From NCBI GenBank assembly GCA_000310025.1, contig FN648111.1:186001-250000 (forward strand): 64,000 nt of DNA. The letters are read 5' to 3'. Under the pieces are notes generated by a model. The model saw only the letters and a list, made by a program, of their open reading frames with translations. It searched no databases and was not told where the DNA came from. The position numbers were made by a program, and so were the translations under genes. Shown piece after piece: positions 48,949 through 63,739 of the stretch. Each line of letters starts with the position of its first letter. The first letter of the stretch is position 1. Source of the DNA: Ectocarpus siliculosus (Eukaryota > Sar > Phaeophyceae > Ectocarpales > Ectocarpaceae).

Positions 48949-49215
48949 TGTTGTGGGATTACACGCGTAGCGATCCCTGTAGACCCTGACGAAGACTCAC
49001 TTGTTTATTAATCTCTTGGAACAAGCAGTGCTTGCTGTTGCTTTGCTCTCGAAGGTAGACTGAGCACAGAGGGGGAGGACATGCTCCCTCTAAAAGGGGC
49101 CACAAAGGTCCTGTCCCCTGTTTTATCCTTCCATCGGGAGTTACATCTCCCGCACTTTCCTCTGGGAATTACTCCGCAATACCGTTGGCACTGGCTACAT
49201 TCAAATCCCATAACA
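48949..49215 (-). repeat. 3' LTR
   Basis: 267 bp, identical in length to the 5' LTR and differing from it at two positions. In transcription sense it has a TATA-like GGATAAAACAGG and an ATTAATAAACAAG polyadenylation signal. The adjoining polypurine tract is weak (AGGGTAGGCTAG). Confidence 0.95.
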
Positions 49216-49852
49216 CTAGCCTACCCTGGAGGTTCTCATACGCAGATACTTGAAACCTAGGGACTTGACAAATAATTGAAAATGAAAGGATCGAGGATGT
49301 GGAGCCCCAAAATACCAAGAATCACCCTCCCACACCTCTCACACGATGAGTCGCAAGACCATCGTTTGACCCAAGCAAAAAGAACGAAAGAGAAGGGAAA
49401 GACGGGGGCTAAGAATGAAACAGGGGGACAATAGACACGATCATAGAAAACGTCAACGCTACAAATACCATAACAGGTCGGAACCCAAAGAAAGGAAGAA
49501 AATGCTGGAAAAGCACCGTCGGAACGGCGAAAACCAACCGTATCGACAAAACGATACAAAACACGAAGCAGTCGGTGTCGCTCAACGACTAAAAGCGACG
49601 AAAATACTCACGGCTAGCCCGTATAAGCTAACTAATCACAAAGAAAACCTAATGACGCCATAGGGCGACGTACGCAAAAAGGTAAGAAACCAATCGTTTC
49701 GACAGCGAAAACCAGGGGGCCATGACCCAACATAAGGTCCGTCGAAATCAAACCGCCGCGGGGAGCCGAAAATAAAGCTCAACCACGCGAACGGCGAAAG
49801 AAGCAGAAAGGCAAAAAGGACTCGAAAGACAAGACGACGTACCAGGCGGAAA
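49216..49852 (-). other. 3' untranslated region of the retrotransposon
   Basis: Non-coding stretch between the end of the integrase frame and the 3' LTR; in transcription sense it is T/C-rich. Open frames here are compositional and match nothing I recognise. Confidence 0.5.
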
Positions 49853-52345
49853 CTAACCGACCGCCAGAATGACGGAGAAAAAGGGGTCGAAATACCAAAA
49901 CGAGGCGTCACACTGCGCTATCCAGAGGCAACAACAGCCTACACATACTTTCAAATGAGAGGACCGGACGAGATCAGGGGCGACCTCGAGTCCGCATCCC
50001 AACTGGGATAGAACACACACGTCACACAGGTAGATCCCAAAACACACACGGTTGCTAATCGGTGCGGGCCGGATCATTTGGCGGCGAATGCTCCGCCTCC
50101 ACGTTTCGTGACATGTCGACATTGCGAAGGCGCTACCGCTGTGAACTTGAAGGCACCACGAACCGCAGACGGCCGATCCGAGCGTAGAGTAACGAACAAC
50201 GGAGAGGGCGATCTTGACCGGTCCGGGGTCGCCGAGGAAACGTACAATGTAGTGGTCGGCCCGTTCAGTCGGTCCAGAAATCTTGCCCAGCCACCAGAGT
50301 CCATCTTGAGCCTTGTACCAGAAGAACGCACCCACAGGTAGAGGAGTATCGGCGAAACGACGGTCCCAAGTTGAGCGGGAGACAAAGGAGTAACCCGGAG
50401 GCAAATATCTCTCGCCCTTAGCACGCGCCAATTCGCGTGCGGCTGCGCCAATACGCATTGCACGGTAACGGCGATTCGTCTGACGGTGTTGATCGGGCGT
50501 ACCCGTCCAATACCGGAGAATTTGCGATCGAGAGTGCTGAAGGCCCATCTCACGCTCCCAAGAAGGGCGGAGAAGGCCCTTCCAATGTGTCTGATACAGA
50601 ACAGCGATAACACCACCACGACCGCGAACAGACTGGTGACCAGTAATTTGTTCTATCTCGAGGCGTTCAACCGAAGTCGAGACGTCATTTTCTGTAACAT
50701 GATACGGAGGAGATTTGGTCGTATAGTTGTTTAAAACGTACTGCGTGAGACCGGTCGGCAGAAACCGTGGCAGGTCCTCAGCGTCATGCGGATTAGCGCA
50801 TGGCTTGCAGCGTGCGACCGAAACACGACGTTTCGAGTCTTTGGCCGGCAGGTCCGACGGAAGATCCAAGTATAACAACTTGGCCGCGAGAGGACTGCCA
50901 TCCGGGGCTTTCGAACAGGGGCCTACAGCCAACACTTTAAACGGACCGGTCCAAAGCAATGACAACTTCGCTTTGAGGACGTTGTCGTCGGTGCCTGATC
51001 GAACACCGGAGCGAATGGTAGATTCGGTATTATAGATCCAAACCCAATCGCCGATGGTGTAAGTCGGAAGCTTGTGCAAAGCATCCGAGAGAGCGGGATT
51101 TCGACGCTCGATCCGAGAAATGGATAACTTGTGCTGCTCGCGTACTAGCTCGTAAGCACGACGTTGGCGATCAGCAGCGAGGTCGCAATATTGGAGATGG
51201 TCGCGATCCAAACTTTGATGACCACGAGCATGAGGATGCTCGATGACAATTATCGGAAGGCGAGGCAAACGGTTGATATGCACCTCATTAGGTGCTAAAC
51301 CGGTGGCCGCGCTAACAGAGTTATTATAGGAAAAATCTACATAAGGGAGATGGACATCCCAATCATCTTGCCGTTCGTTAACGACCATGGCAAGCATTTG
51401 TGCCATAGTATGGTTAACTCGCTCGACACCACCATTTCCATTAGGATGGTACGAACTGGTGGCCACTTTGCGAACTGCGAGACGTTTGTAAACGGCTTGT
51501 GACAGTTTCGAGCAAAATTGTGTGCCATTGTCTGATAAAAGACTCAAGGGGCAACCCCACAGAGGGATATACCGATTCACTAATATCTGCAGCCTTCAGC
51601 GGTAAACTCAGCAGCCGTAACGGCGTACATGTCAGCACGCCGACTAAACCGGTCGGTGAAGAGCAGAATGTAAGTGTTACCCCTAGGGGTGGGTCGGCAG
51701 TGGGCCGAAATAATCGACACTCACGGACACTCCAGGTCCGGATGGCAGTGGCAAGCTTAAAATGGGCCACCTGGCCGTTTGTCGGGAAGTTTTACGAGCT
51801 TGGCACTTGAGGCAATGGCGAATCCACCATTTGGTACAGACGCTCATGCCTACCCCCCAGTAGAAACGCTCTAACATAGACAGCGTACGAGCTGCACCAA
51901 GATGACAAGGCGCATTAGCGTGACAGATCTGCATGATCCATGGGCGCATCAACATGGGGACGTAAACTCTAATAGGTTCGTCGTTGAGGAGACGTGCCGC
52001 ACGCCCGCCATGGCGCGTGGAAGTGGCAGAAGCGGTTGTGGTGGGCTTCTTAACGAGAAGCACTACGTCATCGCCGTCAATGTGCAACCGGCCTTTATGT
52101 GCCAGTTCACGGATGTCCGAAAACGAAGGTCGACGGTGTGACGGAAGGTGGTCAAGAAAACCAGGCGGTAATTCGGGAGGTTGACCTAGAAGGATGTAGC
52201 GTATGGCGGCATCGCACACTGGTTCACCGCGTTGTTCTCGCCCCCAATCAGAAAAGAGAAAAACGCTCAACCGATTCGCGGAAATCGAGCTCCACGCCCG
52301 AAAGCACTGGGGTATCAACAGCCGGCGGAACGCGCACCGAACCAA
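49853..52345 (-). pseudogene. Integrase with chromodomain-like and Tudor-like C terminus (frameshifted)
   Basis: Inserts the cDNA copy into the genome. Zinc module: HANAPCHLGAARTL with HCLKCQARK (HHCC). Catalytic triad: Asp in VSVDYFGPLP, Asp in LLSDNGTQF, Glu in GGVERVNHTM. Two indels interrupt the core: an extra base after PLPT (about 51695) and a lost base near 51590; the frame is restored by the second. After the core come a chromodomain-like segment (EIEQITGHQSVRGRGG, THWKGLLRPSWEREMG) and a Tudor-like segment (GLWWLGKISGPTERADHY, VRFLGDPGPVKIALSVVRY), both likely chromatin readers guiding insertion. A further frame change near 52330 separates the zinc module from RNase H. Confidence 0.88.
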
Positions 52346-54513
52346 GCAAAGGTCCAGGCGCGGGCGTCGGCGGTGTCGGGTCTGGGCGAACGGCCATCTC
52401 CGGAATTGGACTCAGTGGCGCCGAAGCGGCGGAATCCAACGGGCCGGGGAGCCGAAGATTGATGAACGCGAGGCGCACGAGCTACAGACTGAGGAACAGT
52501 CGGCTCGAGAAGCGAGTCCTCCGGCTGGGAAAAGCGATAGTCCACAGCCGGGCGCGGAGCACCGGCGGCAGCAGCAGCTCGCCGACGGGTTCGTATCGAA
52601 ATTAGATCGGTAGGATCCAGGGCGCGCCTGGATGAAGCACCAGGGCGTGTAGCGGGCGTTTCTGTCGCATCTTGTACGGAAAAAACACCAGCAGCAGTCG
52701 AAACTGCAGAACGACCCGAGGCGACCAAGGGAGGGCGGTTGCGAGCGGTTGTAGAGCCCGAAGCACCGATAACAGTCGGGGTTAAACCTCGAACAGACCA
52801 AACGCCCGAGGGAACGTCAGAATGAGCGACAGTAGCGCGCGGTCCGTGCTCGCGAAAATCAGCAAAATCAGCTGAAGAAGGCGGTAGCCCACCCAAGACT
52901 GAACTCGGGGCGGACGGCACGAGCCCACCCAAGCCAACACCGGCTTGATGGCCAGAAGGCACAAACCCACAAGAGCGGATAAAATAAACCGTTTCATCTT
53001 CAGCCGACGGAGTCAAACGACTGCGGCCAGAACGGTCACGCTCGGTAGCTTCTATCGGTAGCCGAGAAAGGAAGTCAGCATTGCCGTTAGACGAACCCTT
53101 GCGATACTCAAGAGTGTAGGAGTATGCCGTCAGGAACTCCAACCAACGTTGAACGCGAGCGTTGTTTTCCCCCACCTTTGCAAGGTGTTCAAGGGACTTG
53201 TGATCCGTGAAAATCTTGAAGTGGGTGCCTCATAGGTAACCGCGAAGGCGCTTGATGCACCAAATGATACTGCCAGCTTCAAGATCCAGAGGAGTCCAAT
53301 GGCGCTCAGATTCCAAAGTAGCTCGGCTAACAAAAACGATAGGCCGAATAGAGCCATCAGGTTGTTCTTGTTCCAAAGTTCCACCAAACCCATCTTTACT
53401 CGCGTCACAGTAGAGGCGAAAAGGGCGCGAACCGTCGGATACAGCATCCCAATCTGGATACACCAAAACTGGAGGGTTCGCCAGTTCTTCGAGAAGTTGG
53501 CGAACGACGGATTCCATTGAACCCGTGAACTCCAACTTCACATTCTTTTTAAGAAGAGTCGTAAGAGGGCGAATACGCTTAGCATTCTGTGGAAGAAACT
53601 TCCGGTAATAACCCAAACCACCCAGCAAAGCTCGAAGCTGCTTGGTGTCTTTGGGCATCGGCATCTTGGTGAGAGCAACAACTTTTTCACCATTGGGCCG
53701 AACTCCGTCCGGAGATATAGTGTGCCCAAGAAACTCGGCTTCCGTGGCGCCAATAGTGGCTTTCGGAGGAGTCAGTTTCAAATGGTGCTCGCGCAATCTT
53801 TCGAAAAGAGAGCGAATGGTCGCTACATGAGCGGCCGGGGTCTCATCAAAGACAATGAGGTCGTCCAGATACGACGCAACACCTCGAAGATTTTCGATGA
53901 CTTCCTTGACGACCTTACAAAACCATCCGGGAGCAGCGGCACTGCCCTGAGGCATTTTCAACCACTCAAACAGCCCAGAAGACGTAACAAACGCCGTGAG
54001 GGGGATGGTATCACGATGAACCGTGATCTGATGGAACGAAGATTTCATGTCAAAGAGAGAATAAACCTTCCCCTTCAACAATTCGTCCAGAGTATCATCA
54101 ACTCTAGGAATCGGAAGCTGACTAAGAGCACATAGTTTATTCAACTTACGATAGTTTACGGTGATGCGAACACCACCGGATTTCTTGGGTATAACAACCA
54201 AAGGACTCGAGTACGGTGACGTCGAGTGTTGTACAAGACCCGCAGCAAGATATTGGTCGAGAATAGCGTCCACTTGCTTCGAAACCGGAGGACTAACTCG
54301 GTACGGACGAGATGTAACGGGCTCACTGCCGGAGGGAACGGTCAACTTGAACGGGAACAATGAACAAGAACCGAAATCCGTAGGCGAACTGGAAAACACG
54401 TCGTGATATTCACATAGCACCTTACCCAATTCGGTAATAACGTCCGGTGTCCAACCAGGACGATATAAATTAAACGTGATTTCTCGCAAGTGACGGGGAA
54501 GCTTATCCCACAC
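52315..54513 (-). pseudogene. Reverse transcriptase and RNase H (one in-frame TGA)
   Basis: Copies element RNA to DNA and degrades the RNA strand. RT motifs: PYSSPLVVIPKKSGGVR, YRKLNKLCALSQLPIPRVDD, YSLFDMKSSFHQI, FEWLKMPQGSAAAP and the catalytic ASYLDDLIVF. RNase H: FRLYCDASKDGFGG, LDLEAGSIIW and KIFTDHKSLEHL supply its acidic residues, and ADFLSRLP ends it. The TGA at 53230-53232 falls in RGYL-stop-GTHFK and looks like CGA changed to TGA. A long Ser/Pro/Arg-rich linker follows RNase H before the integrase. Confidence 0.92.
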
Positions 54514-54880
54514 ACGAGAGAACTGGCACGTTGGTCTGGTGCTAAACGCGCCAAAAGAGCCGGGGAAGGCGAAAGAGGAGTCGAATCAGAAGGATTCGAA
54601 CCAGGCGCCGGATGCGGCGGTTTGGCGGTCCGTTCATGCAGATCATACACAAACGAATGAGCCGTCGGTGACGCTGTCGAACCGGAGCCATCGTAGTTAA
54701 AAACGGGGCCAGGGTCCGTGTGGTCAGATTGCGAGGTGTCCGAAACGGGAGTGGGTGAAACGGCGGTGGCCGGAAGACCAGCTTCGTCGGTATCACACGG
54801 AAACGCACCAAGGGGAACCTTGAGGAGGGGCGCTGAAGCGGTACCCAAAACATCACCCGGTTCCAAACTCGAAACTCCCG

Positions 54881-55864
54881 CTAATGGCACACGTTGGCGG
54901 CCATGAGTAACAAAATGTTCTTCTGAAGAAAACATGGACGTTTGACAAACATATCTACCAGATAATTGCCTACAAGGGCAGGAGACCCATCACTGCGAAC
55001 TAAATCAACTGGAACCAGTTGGTGTTCAGGCAGTAATTGAATGGGATGTCGGCCAGCATATCTAAGCTGGAAACTACCCTCACGAGCAGTGACGTCATGC
55101 ACAAAAGCTTCAGCACCACCGTGCTTATGGTGGGCCAAAGTTAGTTCCCCGAAAACGCGATCATTGGAGCGTCTTGTGGGCAAGGCACGGTAGGAACGGT
55201 CGCTAAAACGCATCCAACTATCCCTGCCGAGCAACACATCATGTTGCATATCACCGTCAGGCACAACATACGCCCAAACGGCGAGAGAAGCGGTCGGGAA
55301 GTTTCGCCGAAGAAACTGCACGCTTAAACGGACCATGGTCGACGTTTGAAGGGGGGCGGACTCACCAAACCCTCCCCAACAACGAGGTTGGGTGCGTGTT
55401 TCAAACAACGACGAAGCTGCACCCGCGGCTTTCATGGACTCCCAAGTTCGAGAACTAACGAAAGTCTGGGGTGAACCGGTGTCCAGCAACGCCACGCATC
55501 CAAATTGCGTAGAAGCCCAGCCACAATGGGTGAGGATTCGTGCAGTGAAAGAGTCATCGTCAACCGTGATTACACCGCCGACTAAACTAGGACCTTGCTC
55601 AGGAAGCAAAAGCCACTGAGGACCAGGATGGTCAGTGTCCCGAGACACAGCCCAAACGCTGTTGTCATGATCGGACGGGACACTAGTGGCGTATTGCGAA
55701 AAGGACGCAAAACGCTCCGAAGACGACGGCACAGGTGCCGTCGACAGCCGTTGATGCGTGGAAGGATTAACTTCGAACACGGTACAACGATCTGGGCTGG
55801 GCGTTTTACCCAAAGCCGCTAAGCGAGAACTACGTTCTGGCTGTGGGGCGTTTGATCGTAAAAG
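54881..55864 (-). pseudogene. Retroviral-type aspartic protease region
   Basis: Processes the polyprotein. The active-site motif is CVALLDTGSPQTFVSS. A second strand signature (QHDVLLGRDSWMRF) and the segment VGGVITVDDDSFTARILT precede or follow it as expected. The frame is the same as the second half of the NADAR domain and begins directly after that domain's stop at 55865-55867. It runs out near 54881; the continuation (FVTHGRQRVPLAGVSSLEPG) is in another frame from about 54935, so an indel lies near 54930. A further frame change near 54520 precedes RT. Confidence 0.85.
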
Positions 55865-57365
55865 TTAGCGAACGTTCTGTAAAGCTACACCCAACAAATT
55901 TAGACCACGCCAACGAGACGGACGACAAGCGTCCGGATGATCTGCACGAAGACCGATTCCCCAAATGCAGTCATAAGGACTGGCTTCTGCTAAAAGTTTG
56001 TCTCCGGATCCAAGGAGGTGTAGTCTCATCTCGGATTTTGGGAAAATTTAGCGTAAGAGCCGGTCAGCACGATATTTTCGCGCTCCTTCTCCCAGAGAGT
56101 TTGGTCGAAACCCTGGACCGCACGACCATACTTCTTGTGTAGATCGGGGTCGGAAACTCTCATGATGTTCTGTAGACATTCGCGGTCGCCAAAAAGACGA
56201 GCTTCTCTGCAGCAAAAAATTGCTCTGCATACACATACGAAGTACCATCAACGACAAAAGTAGATGAGGTCAATTGACAGAAGGGAGAAGGGGATTTCCA
56301 AGATAGGACCACGTCTGAATTGGAGTACTCCTGAGTAGCATCGAAACCAGCGTCTTTCGAGGACGGGCGATGACGAGAAGTACGAGCAGGATGTGTGTCA
56401 ACTGGTAAATGACCTGAAGTGGGAGACGCCTGGGCAGCATTATGATCAACATCTTCTGCAGATGGGCCGGTGCCAGGTGTGCGGGCAAAGGAATTTTCAT
56501 CCATTGCTAAATTGCCTAAATCAGGGGGTGGGTCCATCGGAGAATTCGAATCCACTGCCGAATTCGCCGAGATAAACGGGGGCGCCACGCTTCGAATAGG
56601 GCTGTCCGTTTCTAGATCTTCTACCGTACCCGCATCCGATCCGGACCAGGGGGCATATAGATCGCTTTCGCGAGGAGCGGACACCAGTGCTTTGTCTGTC
56701 AATACAAGTTTGGACGGTGCAAGGTGCTCCTGGCCGGTCCTCCGTGACAAGGATCGCGAGCATACCGTATTTACGGCGGGCGTATCTGAAGCGTCCTCTG
56801 GAGACGGTGCTGTCAACACTCTCATCGTCGATCGCGGGATGTTCCCGGTTTGCACCTCTGCACGATCGTTCTCGTTGGCAATTGGTGGGGTCTGCTTAGC
56901 CCCACCGGGCGAGAATCGTCGGTCGGAACCTGACGAAACCGCTACCGGTGCTGCGGCGGCTGGCGGACCAACGGCGGCAGCGAGCACAGACGAATCACAC
57001 GTATCAGAAGACGCATCAGAATTGACCACTTCTGACGAATCCTCCTCAATCATATAAAGCGCGTTGCTCTGGCCGGTCTTACCTGCAGACGCCGGGGGGA
57101 GCTGCCGAACTACACTCGGTGGCCCCGCGCGTCTGGTCGCTCTGTTCCCGCACCTCAAGACGGCACTCCCCTCGGGGGAGTCATTTCCCGAAAAAGTACC
57201 CATCAAAAGAGGCGAAGTAGCAGAGGTTGCAAGCGAAATGTCGGAGGGTAAAAGGGGAACGGCATCGTCTTGTGCATTCCCAACCCTCTTGTCCGAATAT
57301 GGAGAAGAAACAGCGGGTGCAAGGGCACCAGCGTTTCGCAGGGCAGGAGCACCTCGCTCCACCAT
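55865..57365 (-). pseudogene. NADAR (YbiA-like) domain ORF within the retrotransposon
   Basis: The ATG at 57365 opens about 340 residues of Ser/Ala/Pro-rich, probably disordered sequence, then a NADAR domain. In the first frame: SPSPFCQLTSSTFVVDGTSY and VYAEQFFAAEK, ending by 56160. One base earlier in frame the domain continues: LFGDRECLQNIMRVSDPDL, KYGRAVQGFDQTLWEKE, YAKFSQNPRMRLHLLGSGD, AEASPYDCIWGIGLRADHP and WRGLNLLGVALQNVR, stop at 55865-55867. The frame change lies in about 56181-56205 and fits one missing base after the AEK codons. NADAR proteins handle NAD/ADP-ribose-related substrates: YbiA acts in riboflavin-intermediate removal, and others remove ADP-ribose from nucleic-acid guanine. 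It sits between Gag and protease, where no enzyme is expected. Confidence 0.9.
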
Positions 57366-57579
57366 CCCTGATACACGTACATCTTGTGAAGAACGTGCAA
57401 TATGTCCCGATGGTGCCGAAGGCGGGTCGGGGGAGGTACACGAACCGCCACCGACGAGTCAGTTGGACCCACGAGCATTGTGGCCATTCTGACCGCCAGA
57501 TTGGAAATTTCCCGGCTGTCTAGCATTCATTGTAGTTAGACGAAACAGAAGCGCCGGGAGGAGAGCCTGTGTGGACCGA

Positions 57580-59504
57580 TTATTGCGGTCGGTATGTAGA
57601 CAGAGCACCAGTGTGATGGGTGTTGTCTGTGGACGGCTGTCGCGAGTTATGAGCAAAATTTCCATTATTGCGACCATCATTCTGGGAGTTACCGTTGTTA
57701 CGGTAGTCGCCTGCGTGATTTCTACGAGAAGACGAAGAGTGGCGCTTGTTACGCCCGCCACCAGCACCTGAACCGGTGTGTGGCTTGCGACGGTAAGACC
57801 TCATACGGCCTTGCCAACGTCGGAAAGCGTCAGAGTTGTCGTTCAGCTCACCTAGTTCTGGGTTCAACAGACCGCTAGAATTTGTGAAAGGAGCTGGGCA
57901 GTGTTTCATGGAATGGCCATCACCAGAGCAGTTCAAACAACGGTTACGGTTCTCTCGAAACGCTTGCGAGCGAGCGTCCTGAGTCAAGACAGGAGTCCAC
58001 AAAAAAGGATCACCGGTGATACGGAAAGAGGAACTGACTTGGTACACATTCGACCAATCGCCCTGTGTGGCGGGCCATGCACTATAATCACGGGAAAACG
58101 GATCATCACCGCCGCCCTGAGACTGAACTGCCAAAACGACAGGATTTTGTGTAGAGCCTTGTGCCCACCGGCCCGAAGGCGCAGGTGCAGGTGCACGGTT
58201 CTGGGAACGCCGGGGCTGCGAAGAACCAGGCGTGGAAGACAAAGAAAAATACTCTGAACCTCCTATAGCGGGGGTTTTGTTGGTGGCCAAAGGCGCGAAC
58301 GCCTGCCACATGCCACATGCATCAATCGAGTCAAACGGTGTCACGGCCGTAGCCAGATCACCAGGGTACAGCATCGGAGCCAAAGACGGAAACTGTTTAC
58401 TTACAGAATTCCTGACTATCTCAAGCACCATAGACCCGCTAGGAGCCAAAACACGCTCAGATCCGGTGACAGAAGAAACCAAAAGGCGGAACGCCCTAAG
58501 GTAATCCGCAAACAAGGTTCCATTCGAAGCACCAAATTGCTGAAGTCGCAAAAACGACTCCTATCGATCTCCGACATCGAATTGCTCCGACAGCAGCCGC
58601 AGAAGGAGCGTGAAGGCCTCTGGACCCGTGGCTCCTTCATCCAGCCTCCGCTTCACTTGCTGAAAATAATCAGAAATGGAGAGGACAAGGTCGGATGTAG
58701 TAGGTTTGTCAGGTGAGATCGCACTCAAAAATCTCTTTCGAAGAGGGCGCTCCCAACCTCGGACAAAATCGGAGTCCATCAAACCGACGCTACGATCATC
58801 ACACAACATCAAAATATCCGTGAGCGCAGATCGAACGGTGCGAATGAGCTGCTGATATGCATCAGCTGGCAGCAAAGACGCAGGGAAAGGCATAGCGGAT
58901 ACACGTTCAACTTTTTTTCGGTTAAGGGTGATGTACTCACGTTGGACACGAGCAACATGTGCGGCATCAACTGCCGAAGCAGCAGCAGCAACCGTTGCAT
59001 GGCGAGCGTGAGCAGTGGTGGAAGAAAGCGGTAAAGCACTATCATCGGTGGGCACACTTGCTATGGCAAGAGGCTCTGTTTTTACAGACGGTGGGGCAGC
59101 TTCAACAGCAACACCACTGGGTTCGGTCTTAATAGACGGTTTTGTGTCTGCAACATCAACACCACGGAAGTCTGTCAACTTGACAGACTTGTAACTACGC
59201 AACACAGTGTTCGAAAACACAAGATGAGCATCACGCAGAAGAGCGTTAAGACGATCATCAGAAGCAACATGCACGAGAGACGGTACTACTTGCCTGGAAG
59301 ACCGGCCCGAAGAAGCCTTCCGAGGAAGACTACGCTCCGAGGCGGAGTCCGAGGATGCTCCTCCAGCGGTGTCCGAAGACGGGTGGGAGGTGCGGCTATT
59401 CTTGTTCGCTCCTTTCTTGTCCGCGCGCTCCGAAGAGCTGGACGCCGAAGAAGATGGAAGGCGCGACCACGATAGCTGCTATCGCTGTCGCCAGAGCTGC
59501 CGAA
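57580..59504 (-). pseudogene. Gag, main part with zinc knuckle (one in-frame TAG)
   Basis: Structural/RNA-packaging protein. The frame is open from after a TAA near 59504 to 57580 except for TAG at 58561-58563 (FDVGDR-stop-ESFLRLQQFG). The first part is Ser-rich, then helical: DDRLNALLRDAHLVFSNTVL, LTDILMLCDDRSVGLMDSDF, KRRLDEGATGPEAFTLLLRL. The second part continues the capsid-like fold (FADYLRAFRLLVSSVTG), then the nucleocapsid knuckle CLNCSGDGHSMKHC (CX2CX4HX4C), then an Arg/Asn/Ser/Gly-rich RNA-binding tail (RRNHAGDYRNNGNSQ). NADAR follows in a different frame. Confidence 0.85.
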
Positions 59505-59970
59505 CGGTTAATCTCCTGTCCTCCATGATATGACGAACAACGAACCGTTCGAAAATAGCTGCTTCACAGCAGCATCTATCGCATGAAAGTACAAGCATAT
59601 GGGCAGGATGGGTAGTGTTCACAAGAGCTATCACGCCCAGAATTCTTACAAGCGTCGCTTGCTCCCAAGCTCTCCTGGGTGTTGCTACTCGTAGAGTTCA
59701 AGGGCAGCAGCAGTAGCTGCACGTTCATGAGCGGAAGAAAGCATGGGGGGCGGAGCAGGCACATGGTTAGCAGAAGCTACAGCGCGTGCATTGCGAGCCT
59801 GGTGACGATTATCACGAGCAAGCGCCTGCTATCTGTTCTCTTAGAGTTCTCTTAGAGGAATTTAGGATTCTGAGAAGCGGACACTCGGGCGGCGGTCACA
59901 CTACATGTAGCATCAGTATGCACCGACCGAGCGCCCGCGCTGCTTCCCCGAACAGGAATCAGCGATTTTG

Positions 59971-60735
59971 CTACATGGTTAATAGCAGGCGTATCGCAAC
60001 GCACACTTCAAGAGGTGTTGATGGTCCTTGGTGCGACTGAGCGCACGTCCGAACGAACACTAGAGCTGCTAGGTGCAACTGCGAGTGCGGAGGGGTGTTG
60101 TCCAGCGTCAGAAAAATGACAGTCCCGTCAGCAAAAGACGGGACAAGAGACACATCACGCGAAGCGAGTGTCGGTCCTATTGCGACTGAACGCACATCGG
60201 AAGTTCCTAGTGCGACTGAACGCACATCGGAGGGTTGAAGAAGAGCTCCTATTGCGACTGAACGCACATCAGAGGGGTGGGTGGCTACTACAGCGGAACC
60301 AGTGGCCACCACCACATCATCACCAGAAACAATAGTCTCAAAAGGAGACGGAGATGTTTTGGAGGGGGTATGAACGGCATCAACAGCAGAACCAGTGGAC
60401 ACAAAAGGAGCAGCCGGTTTACGCGCACGCACACTACTCGGGGCTATAGCCCCACGAGCACGCTCATCCTCTTGGAAAAAGCGAACACGCCTGGCCTCAG
60501 CGCGAAGCTCAGACAGACGTTCGGCCTCTTCTTGAGGATCAGCGGCGCGAGCACCAACACCATCATGCGGTGCATACAGAGCGTGGTCGAAAAAGACCGA
60601 GGCGACTGCAGGATCAACATGTGATACAGCAGGCAGCGCCTCTGGCGAACCAGGCGGTGGGGGAGGAACCGACTGCAGAGAACTGGCAGGGCTGGCGGAC
60701 TCTGAGTCCTCGTTGCCGTCCCTACAATGAGACAT
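59971..60735 (-). pseudogene. N-terminal Gag-related ORF with internal repeats
   Basis: The first ATG after the 5' LTR is at 60735 (SHCRDGNEDSESASPASS). The protein is Pro/Ala/Ser-rich with a helical, charged segment (EEAERLSELRAEARRVRFF) and three to four copies of PSDVRSVA(I/L)G encoded by DNA repeats at about 60174-60270. The frame stops at 59971; sense-like remnants continue in another frame to about 59690 (PPPMLSSAHERAATAAALEL). It probably formed one ORF with the downstream Gag before decay. Confidence 0.6.
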
Positions 60736-60851
60736 ACCAAGAAAGGAAAGCAGGCGCAAGACCGCGCGGTAGAGATGTAGCCAGTGGAGCAAAAACGAGC
60801 TCTCACGCTAACAACAGAGAAACCAAAGAGCCGAGGGAAAGGCTAAAATCC

Positions 60852-60869
60852 TTTACTGCAGACACGCCA
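60852..60869 (-). other. Primer-binding site candidate
   Basis: Directly after the CA end of the 5' LTR in transcription sense the sequence is TGGCGTGTCTGCAGTAAA. The leading TGG pairs with the CCA end of a tRNA; I cannot name the tRNA. Confidence 0.6.
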
Positions 60870-61136
60870 TGTTGTGGGATTACACGCGTAGCGATCCCTG
60901 TAGACCCTGATGAAGACTCACTTGTTTATTAATCTCTTGGAACAAGCAGTGCTTGCTGTTGCTTTGCTCTCGAAGGTAGACTGAGCACAGAGGGGGAGGA
61001 CATGCTCCCTCTAAAAGGGGCCACAAAGGTCCTGTCCCCTGTTTTATCCTTCCATCGGGAGTTACATCTCCCGCACTTTCCTCTGGGAATTACTCCGCAA
61101 TACCGTTGGCACTGGCTACTTTCAAATCCCATAACA
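60870..61136 (-). repeat. 5' LTR
   Basis: 267 bp; matches the 3' LTR except C/T at the GA(C/T)GAAGACTC position and A/T in GGCTAC(A/T)TTCAAATC. It abuts Helitron-derived sequence at its outer (right) edge with no duplicated target. Confidence 0.95.
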
Positions 61137-61256: not shown

Positions 61257-62365
61257 TTAGTTGATACTGATACAAGGCTTTCGGCGGCTTACGCCGCCAC
61301 GCTGAGAGAAGCGTACCGCAAGACGCATGTTTCTTGGCGTCTGGTAAACGATGGTATGCGGTGGCTGTGAGATTCCCAGCAATTTGTTCCCGCAGTATGC
61401 AGATGTGAGAAATGATGTACCATTTTTGTTGACAATGTACTTCTCGTTGTAGTCCAGGTACGTGAGGGAATCGAAGTCGGACTCGGTAGGTCTTCCAAAG
61501 TACAGCATGAGGTCGGATTTGGTCTGTTCGGCTTCCGACTTCTGTTCGGCACGTGTAAGAGTTTGATCGACAATGACGTGTTGTTCATCGGGAAGGTGCA
61601 AGCGAAGGGACGTGACGGAAGGGTGGCGCTCCATGATGTGGAAACCAAGTAATCGCCACGCAGCCTCTGCCGCTGACACGTATCTTGCCGATCGGTAAGC
61701 TTCAATTTCGTCACCACCACAAACAATCTTGGCCTTGATAAAGTCGGCGCCTTTCGTGATGTACTTGTAAATATACTTGACTATGGCGTTGGCGGTGCAG
61801 ACGTCAAAACACATGTGACAGTTGTATTTGGAAAGGAGCCAAATGTTGTACGGTGCTATCCATTGATTGGTGGCGAATGATTCGATAAATTTGCCGTTCA
61901 CTCTGTGTGTGTAGGGAAATCTCTCTCCGGTATCTCTACGACGGTACTCGGCTCTACCGGTCTTGCCCACAGCGGCTACGTCACGCCATGGTTGGGGATA
62001 GTTTTTGCCGCACACCTTAACTCCAGGCCGTTTTCGATCTTCCTTCATGCACGGTGATGTGGGGTTGTGACTGCCACACTGTTTATGTACCATGAGGTTC
62101 AGCACTTGATCTCTTGATCTACCATTGTTGAGCTCTGGCGGCGGCACTTCCGCCCAACACCATTCGTCCATTTCTCCCATCTGATCGGGCAAAGGTCCCT
62201 CAAAGCGCACTACTAAATGCATATGGGGCATGCCCCTCTTCTGGAACTCTACGCAGCTCATCTCAAAGTCAATCGGTCCAAAAATCTTGCCACTGCTGAG
62301 GTCTTTCATGAGTTCAGCCATTTTAATTTTGAAGACACGGTCGCATAAGTCTGGCCTGTCTGGTA
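61257..62365 (-). pseudogene. Helitron Rep domain (HUH endonuclease), truncated
   Basis: Rolling-circle replication initiator of a Helitron transposon. The reading starts at RPDLCDRVFKIKMAEL, then KIFGPIDFEMSCVEFQKRGM and the HUH motif PHMHLVVRF. CGKNYPQPW and GKFIESFATNQWIAPYN follow, then the two-tyrosine motif KYIYKYITKG. It ends at a stop at 61257, before any helicase motifs, about 120 bp from the LTR of the retrotransposon. Intact Helitron proteins carry a Pif1-like helicase next; it is absent here and to the left of the retrotransposon. Frame differs from the N-terminal ORF by one base near 62365. Confidence 0.9.
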
Positions 62366-63480
62366 AGTATTAACCCACGAGTTGTGTTGACTGAGAAGGT
62401 TTCGGACGGAGTCGACGATATTAGGATCGATGCCGAGGCTTTCGCCGTACGCTCTGTGCTCGTCGTCGTAGACATAAAATCTCGCGTTATTTGATGGTTG
62501 ACGTTGTTCTCCTGTGTATAGGTTTTCGGCATCAAATATTCGGCGATATGCCTTGCCACACATCGTGAGCATTGACGGCGGAGACGGCGTTCCTTCCCAA
62601 CACCCTTTCGGACTTGCCCCTAGAGCCGTAAAAGAAAACAGACTATTTAATCGCCGTTGGTGTTGGATTACGTTGGGGTGATTGAACAACTCTCTGGCAG
62701 CGTCTGGTAACGGAGGCAAGTTGGCGACGGAGAATTTACCGTTGCTGCAACAGTTGATAACTTCTTCTTTCCATAGCTTGGCTCCACAATGTTGACAGAC
62801 GATGTTGTTGGGATCAGAGAGGAGCGGATACTGAAATTTGTGCTCTTCGGGGAGCGAAATACTGTTGTCACCAAAGGCGATGACGCCAACCCGTGGATTG
62901 TTTTGCCTACGACGTTGAACGATGAAACGACGTAGCGCTGTTCTTCTCGTTCTTGCTCTGGGTTGCAGTAGACGATGACGACGCATTGCACTTGATTGTT
63001 GTTGAGTGATGGTCCCTGCGGACGCGGCCAGCCGAATTGCGGCTACTATAGAAGTAGATAAGTGTCCTGAGAAATTAGTGCTATTAATCTCAGCCTCTAG
63101 TTGTTCGTCTACATTCCCGTTGTGAACTTGAAGGGACTGAGATTCAGGTGTCGTTATCTTTGCTTCTGCAGGCGCATGGTTGTTTCTACGACGAGTAGTT
63201 CGTGTGCTACTATCGGGCTCACTTATCTTATCTTCACGTATACTATTGGATCGTGCACGGATTTGGGCAGTAGAATTGCACTTCTCTTCGGCAGGCGACA
63301 TAGCGGGACGACGACAATGCGTGCGTGTTCGGGGAGGTCTTCCACTCGTCGTGTCCGCTGAACTTTCTTGTGCAGGTGCAGGTGCATGAGTACTACGCGT
63401 GCGCGATCGTGTCCGCGGCCGGCTATGAACAGATTTTGATTGCGTAGAGGTCGAACTTGTTTCTAGTGAAGATATTTTTT
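62306..63480 (-). pseudogene. Helitron protein N-terminal part with zinc finger
   Basis: Upstream half of the same Helitron protein. The N-terminal third is Ser/Thr/Arg-rich and disordered. Then come VIAFGDNSISLPEEHKFQYP, the zinc-finger-like CQHCGAKLWKEEVINCCSNG, LPPLPDAARELF, RRLNSLFSFTALGASP and YDDEHRAYGESLGIDP. The frame runs past the Rep domain start and stops at 62306, so a one-base shift near 62365 disconnects it from Rep. The frame is open into the inverted-repeat element at the right, so the true start is unclear. Confidence 0.82.
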
Positions 63481-63516
63481 GACGGCGGCAAATAGCTTTG
63501 GGTGTTCGTGTGTGAT

Positions 63517-63739
63517 ATACCGTATATGACACAAGATAACACACCCCCTGGACCGATTTTCAAAGCTCGATTACTCCACGACGAAGAGGATGCATAAACG
63601 AAACAATACGTTTTCGAACAGCTCTCGACGAGACGGTTCCAACGCCGCCGTTTTCAGCGCTGTGACTCTTCCTGCTGTTGAGAAATTGAGCTTTGAAAAT
63701 CGGCCAAGGGGGTATGTTATCTTGTGTCATATACGGTAT
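63517..63739. mobile_element. Short inverted-repeat element (MITE-like), copy B
   Basis: A 223-bp non-coding segment with inverted repeats of about 55-60 bp. The left arm is ATACCGTATATGACACAAGA then TAACACACCCCCTGGACCGA and TTTTCAAAGCTC; the right arm is its complement with a few changes. The inner arm (CACACCCCCTGGACCGATTTTC) is shared with the element at 17393-17601; the outer parts differ. It lies just 5' of the Helitron frame. Confidence 0.82.

What the first reader, a model, noticed from the sequence alone, without database searches (positions are those of the whole stretch)
55865..57365. NADAR domain carried by a Ty3/Gypsy retrotransposon
Seen: a full-length NADAR signature (FVVDGTSY, AEQFFAAEK, KFSQNPRM, EASPYDCIWGIGL, WRGLNLLG) lies between Gag and protease on the same strand, inside matching LTRs. 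Known: NADAR enzymes act on ADP-ribose/NAD-linked or riboflavin-pathway substrates, and some reverse guanine ADP-ribosylation. Inference: the element may use it to counter a host ADP-ribosylation defence on its nucleic acid, or to alter NAD-derived signalling during replication. I know of no established role for this domain in LTR retrotransposons, but could not search.
Basis: partly seen in the sequence, partly recalled or inferred. Interest (0 to 1): 0.87.

Follow-up and report, generated by a model that had tools for sequence, protein, structure and literature searches.

The report
NADAR enzyme inside algal Gypsy retrotransposons
A family of jumping genes in a brown alga carries a conserved enzyme domain that in other organisms strips ADP-ribose off DNA bases; this was already reported in Ectocarpus in 2025, and here it proves to be old, conserved and inherited together with the reverse transcriptase, though the copy in this window is broken.

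Summary
Confirmed, with corrections. On the minus strand lies a 12.2-kb Ty3/Gypsy element (267-bp LTRs, 2 differences). This copy's domain is dead: two frame breaks and a stop. It is not a one-off: the genome gave 150 NADAR matches (capped list), and 127 of 150 related RTs have one upstream, median 2,054 bp. In four fetched copies a UGA-C stop in frame separates Gag from a Pol that contains NADAR. Five active-site positions of a solved NADAR are invariant in 9 of 9 aligned domains. NADAR is about as conserved between families as RT, with compatible trees.

The host is very likely Ectocarpus or near kin (86 of 87 residues of one exon). A 2025 paper (PMC12477816) already reports NADAR at the N-terminus of Pol in one Ectocarpus Gypsy lineage, so the core is known. 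Not seen in the parts of it that I read: co-descent with RT, the UGA-C junction, active-site residues, an intron-split host NADAR gene. Function remains inference.

The parts
60870..61136 (-). 5' LTR of the element (TGTTATGGGAT...ATCCCACAACA)
   Evidence: (99.25% to the other LTR); 41 LTR matches in the genome, the window's two included (176 candidates, 40 scored); five further pairs enclose listed NADARs
60850..60869 (-). primer-binding-site-like sequence right after the 5' LTR (starts TGG)
   Evidence: by eye; the tRNA was not identified
57462..59478 (-). Gag pieces (a stop and a frame break), zinc knuckle CX2CX4HX4C near the C-terminus; the N-terminal end was not delimited
   Evidence: ORFs 57580-58560, 58561-59478 and 57459-57800; junction matches L031 by eye; no Pfam Gag match
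57459..57461 (-). UGA (followed by CUC) at the Gag/Pol junction, in frame with the Pol start
   Evidence: corresponding junctions in siblings
56302..57458 (-). N-terminal Pol linker, poorly conserved between families
   Evidence: in siblings of families A, B and E this segment gives only hits of 13-36 aa
55856..56301 (-). NADAR domain (PF08719 in open siblings), broken here by two frame breaks and a stop near its end
54881..55864 (-). aspartic protease region (DTG motif by eye)
   Evidence: Asp_protease_2 E 0.013, below cut-off
53716..54192 (-). reverse transcriptase core (RVT_1)
   Evidence: E 3.5e-26; (G000:C43:239716-240192, 90% identity to L031 RT)
53122..53430 (-). RNase H, interrupted by an in-frame stop at 53230-53232
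   Evidence: proteins 1 and 2
51785..51961 (-). integrase zinc-binding domain (Integrase_H2C2)
   Evidence: protein 3, E 2.4e-10
49853..51595 (-). ORF placed as integrase core and C-terminal part by position; chromodomain-like motif read by eye; not scanned against Pfam
   Evidence: in siblings Chromo is below cut-off, E 0.012 and 0.14
48949..49215 (-). 3' LTR

Best explanation
SHOWN: the window holds a decayed copy of a Ty3/Gypsy element whose lineage, in a genome that is very likely Ectocarpus or near kin, carries a YbiA-type NADAR domain in Pol at a constant place; the domain is conserved between families about as strongly as RT and has the same family history. STRONGLY INFERRED: it was acquired once, before these families split, and kept by purifying selection. 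INFERRED: Gag and Pol are in one frame separated by UGA-C, so NADAR is made only on stop-codon readthrough, at low dose relative to Gag, as part of Gag-Pol, and would be packed with protease, RT and RNase H into the particle. INFERRED, less sure: there it acts as an ADP-ribosyl (N-glycosyl) hydrolase that clears ADP-ribose or a related adduct from guanine in the element's RNA template or new cDNA, keeping it readable and integrable.
For: 150 NADAR matches in the genome (150 of 230 candidates scored); 127 of 150 RTs (150 of 432 candidates scored) have one upstream on the same strand within 6 kb, 120 of them at 1,900-2,250 bp. Four copies fetched because of their long frames have Pol frames of 2,175-2,580 aa preceded by an in-frame UGA-C; Pfam order with NADAR first was read in two of the four. 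E28, K35, K58, R62 and E108 are invariant in 9 of 9 aligned domains from seven families and align with E43, K50, K75, R79 and E125 of P. nicotianae NADAR (8BAU), which hydrolyses guanine-ADP-ribose in vitro (PMC11543638, passages; mapping mine, through the alignment). NADAR and RT trees of 21 elements are compatible in family topology (families B and C stay unresolved in the NADAR tree); identity matrices correlate at r 0.94, 0 of 9999 permutations as high. One copy each of families A, B, E: NADAR 57-66% identity, RT 59-68%, protease region 46-50%, Gag 28-34%, Pol linker only hits of 13-36 aa. Pooled pN/pS of 7 family representatives: NADAR 0.349, RT 0.322, with synonymous changes saturated for most pairs.
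Against: Nothing here tests activity, packaging or readthrough. Element monophyly in NADAR trees is not firm: 89/68 with 76 rows, 64/0 with 34 rows. No DarT or KptA match; PARP gave 4 exon-sized matches at or just over the cut-off, two of them with a stop inside, so the enzyme that would make the adduct is unnamed. YbiA-type NADARs can act on riboflavin intermediates (PMC11543638, PMC9503650, passages), so the substrate may be small. The residue equivalent to D86 of 8BAU varies and that to Y84 is Phe; mutation of the E43 equivalent to Ala had only a minor effect in E. coli C7 NADAR (PMC11543638, passage). Within-family dN/dS (0.07-0.59) is biased, because copies were picked by NADAR score. 16 of 20 inspected RTs without a listed NADAR really lack it at the expected place; five looked 5'-truncated, eleven were not followed.
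Confidence: 0.5

Rival explanations
1. The NADAR acts on a soluble NAD-derived or riboflavin-pathway metabolite (signal or toxic intermediate) in the host cytoplasm rather than on the element's nucleic acid.
For: E. coli YbiA cleaves riboflavin intermediates (PMC11543638, passages); phage NADARs have been argued to act on soluble ADP-ribose derivatives (PMC9503650, passages); the best bacterial match is a stand-alone 174-aa ORF.
Against: Expression as part of Gag-Pol behind a stop codon, co-inheritance with RT and position next to the protease suit a particle-borne enzyme better than a dose-dependent cytoplasmic one; all inference.
Confidence: 0.3
2. The domain is no longer an enzyme but a nucleic-acid- or ADP-ribose-binding module of Gag-Pol (for packaging or targeting).
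For: Non-catalytic use would also be conserved; a C-terminal chromodomain-like region suggests that these elements carry reader modules (below cut-off; PMC12477816).
Against: The Glu, Lys and Arg active-site positions are invariant across 9 of 9 aligned domains, as expected for an active site.
Confidence: 0.15
3. A separate host gene that happens to lie inside this one insertion.
For: An intron-split host-type NADAR gene does exist elsewhere in the genome (L119).
Against: Five other LTR pairs of the same family enclose a listed NADAR (C227, C24 twice, C23, C18); 127 of 150 RTs have one; in the two copies scanned the domain is intronless and in the Pol frame.
Confidence: 0.01
4. Origin: the element took its NADAR from a host gene (an L119-like ancestor) instead of directly from a bacterium; or L119 is a domesticated element domain.
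For: L119 falls with the element NADARs and three bacterial ones in one branch (98/88).
Against: Direction unresolved: host inside the element clade is not rejected (p-AU 0.381 and 0.365), element plus the three bacterial rows neither (0.481), and in the 34-row tree the branch itself has only 59/32. L119 is a long branch.
Confidence: 0.4

Closest known systems
NADAR-bearing Gypsy lineage of Ectocarpus sp. 7 (example Gypsy-12_Ec32), PMC12477816, Genome Biol 2025
   Same: [quoted passage not shown] bacterial-like NADAR.
   Different: No difference shown. Which published family the window copy belongs to could not be tested (supplements closed, no library on hand). The paper suggests a role in processing RNA intermediates; the words readthrough, read-through, stop codon and in-frame do not occur in its main text.
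Tx1 LINE ORF1 NADAR of Crassostrea gigas (PMC12477816)
   Same: A retrotransposon with a YbiA-type NADAR.
   Different: Non-LTR element, ORF1 rather than Pol; described there as divergent hits; not examined here.
P. nicotianae NADAR (PDB 8BAU, PMC11543638)
   Same: Fold family and active-site residues; hydrolyses guanine-ADP-ribose in vitro.
   Different: About 37-41% identity over a 117-residue stretch to the best-scoring element domains; far from them in the tree (stretch only); no element association shown.
DarT1-NADAR toxin-antitoxin systems (PMC11543638, PMC11125620)
   Same: The NADAR enzyme family reverses guanine ADP-ribosylation of DNA.
   Different: The last-strand catalytic residue is Asp there (BC4488 type), Glu here (YbiA type); no DarT match in this genome.
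NADAR in polyproteins of positive-strand RNA viruses (PMC9503650)
   Same: A NADAR inside a polyprotein with the polymerase of an RNA-replicating element.
   Different: Different replication; no sequence comparison made here.

Membership tests
Ty3/Gypsy LTR retrotransposon | Two near-identical LTRs with TG...CA ends | tested here: met
   267 bp, 2 substitutions
Ty3/Gypsy LTR retrotransposon | Pol order protease - RT - RNase H - integrase | tested here: met
   in the window (protease below cut-off, DTG by eye; integrase by its zinc-binding domain); in two open siblings (RT, RNase H, Integrase_H2C2, rve; no protease family reported there)
Ty3/Gypsy LTR retrotransposon | Gag with zinc knuckle upstream of Pol | tested here: met
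   CX2CX4HX4C by eye in ORF 57580-58560; no Pfam Gag match
NADAR superfamily (PF08719) | Profile match over the whole domain | tested here: met
   in siblings, best E 8.6e-48, Pol residues 444-594 and 384-533; the window copy is split and gives no match on its own
NADAR, YbiA subfamily | Glutamate as catalytic residue in the last strand (Asp in BC4488 type, His in phage gp30.3 type) | tested here: met
   E108 invariant in 9 of 9, aligned with E125 of 8BAU; rule from PMC11125620, passages
NADAR superfamily (PF08719) | Removal of ADP-ribose from guanine | not testable with these tools
   needs an assay
[quoted passage not shown]
Ectocarpus NADAR-Gypsy lineage (PMC12477816) | C-terminal chromodomain | tested here: inconclusive
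   Chromo E 0.012 (L031) and 0.14 (L034), both below the curated cut-off; none in a 110-aa piece of L033
Ectocarpus NADAR-Gypsy lineage (PMC12477816) | RT clusters with the published family sequences | not tested
Ectocarpus (host) | Host gene near-identical to an Ectocarpus protein | tested here: met
   86 of 87 residues of one PKS III exon identical to 4B0N; 4B0N is Ectocarpus siliculosus (PMC6274091 passages). A second PKS III locus is a less similar paralogue (127 bits over 88 aa). One gene only, so a near relative is not excluded

The most novel reading that the evidence does not exclude
These Gypsy elements pack their own guanine-ADP-ribose hydrolase into the particle, through UGA readthrough, as a counter-defence: brown algae would then have an undescribed enzyme that ADP-ribosylates foreign RNA or cDNA, and the NADAR lineage would be the first retrotransposon anti-ADP-ribosylation system, exchanged with an intron-bearing host NADAR gene.
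Probability: 0.2. Interest if true: 0.85.

Novelty: already known. Interest (0 to 1): 0.5.

Why it matters
It gives a concrete, multicopy eukaryotic system in which an enzyme family known to reverse ADP-ribosylation of nucleic-acid bases is tied to a reverse transcriptase by descent. If the activity on guanine-ADP-ribose holds, it points to ADP-ribosylation of nucleic acid as a living process in brown algae, whose writer is not named (PARP-like exons are present). The finding that NADAR and RT share one history turns the 2025 report of the domain into a statement about selection.

Tried and rejected
8BAU as a relative of the same element: about 37-41% identity for the best-scoring places, not supported. 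A NADAR-less branch of the lineage: of 23 RTs without a listed NADAR, 20 were looked at at the expected place: 4 have NADAR, 16 do not. Five of the 16 were read over about 5 kb and look 5'-truncated: similarity starts inside the protease region and no NADAR, linker or Gag similarity lies upstream. Eleven were not followed; two RTs (C396 and C14:2378, near contig ends) were not looked at; the last of the 23 is the window itself. Within-family dN/dS as proof of selection: set aside as biased (copies ranked by NADAR score); the between-family comparison is used instead. Polarity of host gene versus element: AU tests gave no answer. A domain model by structure prediction was not run: loci from the genome search are not among its stated inputs and the window's domain is broken. 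Rfam: no match in the window at gathering scores. A paper search for retrotransposon with ADP-ribosylation, macrodomain and Gag listed nothing on point (listing only).

Full report
What is there. The window is G000:C43:186001-250000 of a 189-Mb genome in 492 contigs. On its minus strand is a 12.2-kb LTR retrotransposon, 48949-61136, with 267-bp LTRs differing at 2 positions. The order is Gag, UGA, Pol linker, NADAR, protease, RT, RNase H, integrase. NADAR is 55856-56301. Three frames hold its motifs and a stop stands near its end; DNA identity to seven of the eight fetched sibling domains is 97.1-98.2% with two gap openings. So this copy's domain is dead although its LTRs are nearly identical. 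Gag and RNase H are also interrupted. No target-site duplication is visible (by eye), which a recombined or rearranged copy could explain.

It is a property of a lineage. Pfam NADAR has 150 matches in the genome, each marked over the curated cut-off (150 of 230 candidates scored, so a lower bound). The RT of sibling L031 gave 150 matches (150 of 432 candidates scored). 127 of 150 have a NADAR upstream on the same strand within 6 kb, 120 at 1,900-2,250 bp, median 2,054 (NADAR list = plus five places). The window's own RT is among the 23 unmatched, because its broken NADAR was not listed. Of the other 22, 20 were checked at the expected place: 4 do have NADAR, 16 do not. Five of those 16 were read further and look 5'-truncated; eleven were not followed. 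Conversely, 28 of 155 NADAR places have no RT in the list; one of these, C24:331134, is the host gene below, the others were not followed. The window's LTR has 41 matches, its own two included (176 candidates, 40 scored). Five further LTR pairs enclose listed NADARs: C227, C24 twice, C23, and C18, the last with a shortened 5' part. The four pairs that were fetched (not C18) are 96.2-99.6% identical within the pair.

Anatomy of open copies. Four 10-kb stretches (L031-L034) were chosen for their long frames. Their Pol frames are 2,580, at least 2,533 (L032 runs to the end of the stretch), 2,175 and 2,376 aa. Each is preceded by one in-frame UGA followed by C, with the same frame open above it; in L032 that upper frame is interrupted again 340 codons further up. 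The upper frames are called Gag by position; Pfam found no family in those of L031 and L033. In L031 and L033 Pfam gives NADAR at 444-594 and 384-533, RVT_1 at 1147-1305 and 1076-1234, then RNase H, Integrase_H2C2 and rve. In 30 loci with 1.5 kb upstream, UGA-C with an open frame running up to the locus end is seen in 13: A 2 of 2, B 5 of 11, C 2 of 4, D 1 of 9, E 3 of 4. L024 (D) has the same UGA-C with a stop 77 codons above; L001 (C) has a UAA elsewhere with an open frame above; the other 15 meet a different stop first. The window's family has UGA-CUC. That UGA-C favours readthrough is recalled, not tested here.

Selection and history. The 82 fetched domains (chosen mostly from the top of the list, not the whole 150; one, L074, is an exon of the host gene) fall into seven families and three singletons at 85% identity. 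Positions E28, K35, K58, R62 and E108 are invariant in nine aligned domains from the seven families; by my mapping they correspond to E43, K50, K75, R79 and E125 of 8BAU. For one copy each of families A, B and E, identities are NADAR 57-66%, RT 59-68%, protease region 46-50%, Gag 28-34%; the linker gives only hits of 13-36 aa. Synonymous sites are saturated between most pairs of seven family representatives, while pooled pN stays at 0.275 (NADAR) and 0.252 (RT). The NADAR and RT trees of 21 elements are compatible in family topology, (A,W), (B,C) and (D,(E,F)); but B with C is unresolved in the NADAR-only tree and not starred in any tree. Identity matrices correlate at r 0.944, 0 of 9999 permutations as high; part of that comes from near-identical copies within families. 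Within families dN/dS is 0.07-0.59, biased low by the choice of high-scoring copies.

Origin. Bacterial scan: 39 loci, best 59% (a Planctomycetota MAG, stand-alone 174-aa ORF), then Polyangia 58%. Viral scan: best 52%, 80 kept of 185. Tree of 76 rows (36 of 39 bacterial and 25 of 80 viral loci, thinned beforehand): the 12 element rows form one branch at 89/68; with 34 rows only 64/0. So monophyly of the element domains is likely from co-descent with RT, but not firm from the NADAR tree. The scan patterns were taken from the element domains, so the bacterial sample is biased towards look-alikes.

A host gene. At C24:331134 the NADAR is split by two introns with GT...AG borders (L119: coding stretches 413-472, 1544-1792 and 2850-2990; the outer limits are those of the domain, not of exons). 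By eye it keeps the E43, K50, K75 and E125 equivalents, but the residue equivalent to R79 is Lys. It falls near the element NADARs but its place is unresolved. No transcript evidence was available.

Host. One PKS III exon is identical at 86 of 87 residues to PDB 4B0N, which is Ectocarpus siliculosus (PMC6274091, passages); a second locus is a less similar paralogue. I take the genome as Ectocarpus or near kin; this rests on one gene.

What is known. PMC12477816 (section 5 part 1 of 2 read; [quoted passage not shown] It also reports NADAR-like ORF1 of oyster Tx1 LINEs. Listings in which I saw no other report: 20 of 104 papers listed; 15 of 15; 20 of 181; 1 of 1; 2 of 2; 2 of 2; 2 of 2; open-licence papers only, and 'nadar' also matches surnames. 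In one search the second paper, PMC7922944, was seen only as a listing, so its two mentions of the word are unread. Activity of the enzyme family is from PMC11543638 and PMC11125620 (passages).

Mechanism. Shown: architecture, conservation, co-descent. Inferred: readthrough expression, particle location, hydrolysis of guanine-ADP-ribose on template or cDNA. The writer is unknown: DarT 0, KptA 0, PARP 4 exon-sized matches at or just over the cut-off, Macro 1. These searches see genes exon by exon, so zeros are weak evidence; their prokaryotic controls rang in 1, 3, 0 and 8 of 14 genomes for DarT, KptA, PARP and Macro.

Noticed in passing
L119 (G000:C24:329600-333000), 413-472, 1544-1792, 2850-2990: Intron-split, host-type NADAR gene with GT-AG borders, in the same branch of the 76-row tree as the element domains; the residue equivalent to R79 of 8BAU is Lys.
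   Followed up: partly
window 61257-63559, minus strand: Helitron-like replicase fragment (Helitron_like_N, E 1.2e-14, in ORF 61257-62369) directly upstream of the element.
   Followed up: no
window 48949-61136: The LTRs are 99.25% identical yet Gag, NADAR and RNase H are all interrupted and no target-site duplication is seen: decay faster than the LTRs suggest, recombination, or assembly indels.
   Followed up: no
G000:C3:3913787 and G000:C489:435177: NADAR matches reported in open frames of 10,887 and 6,365 aa; only the 456-bp domain of the first was fetched; not explained (assembly gaps read as open are possible).
   Followed up: no
L031 9568-9767, L032 7177-7402, L033 3049-3274: Tandem direct repeats of about 85-112 bp: in L032 and L033 near the start of Pol, in L031 within the Gag frame.
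   Followed up: no
G000:C43:251674-254314 (just beyond the window): Two further LTR-like matches on the opposite strand, 91-92% identical to the window's LTR.
   Followed up: no
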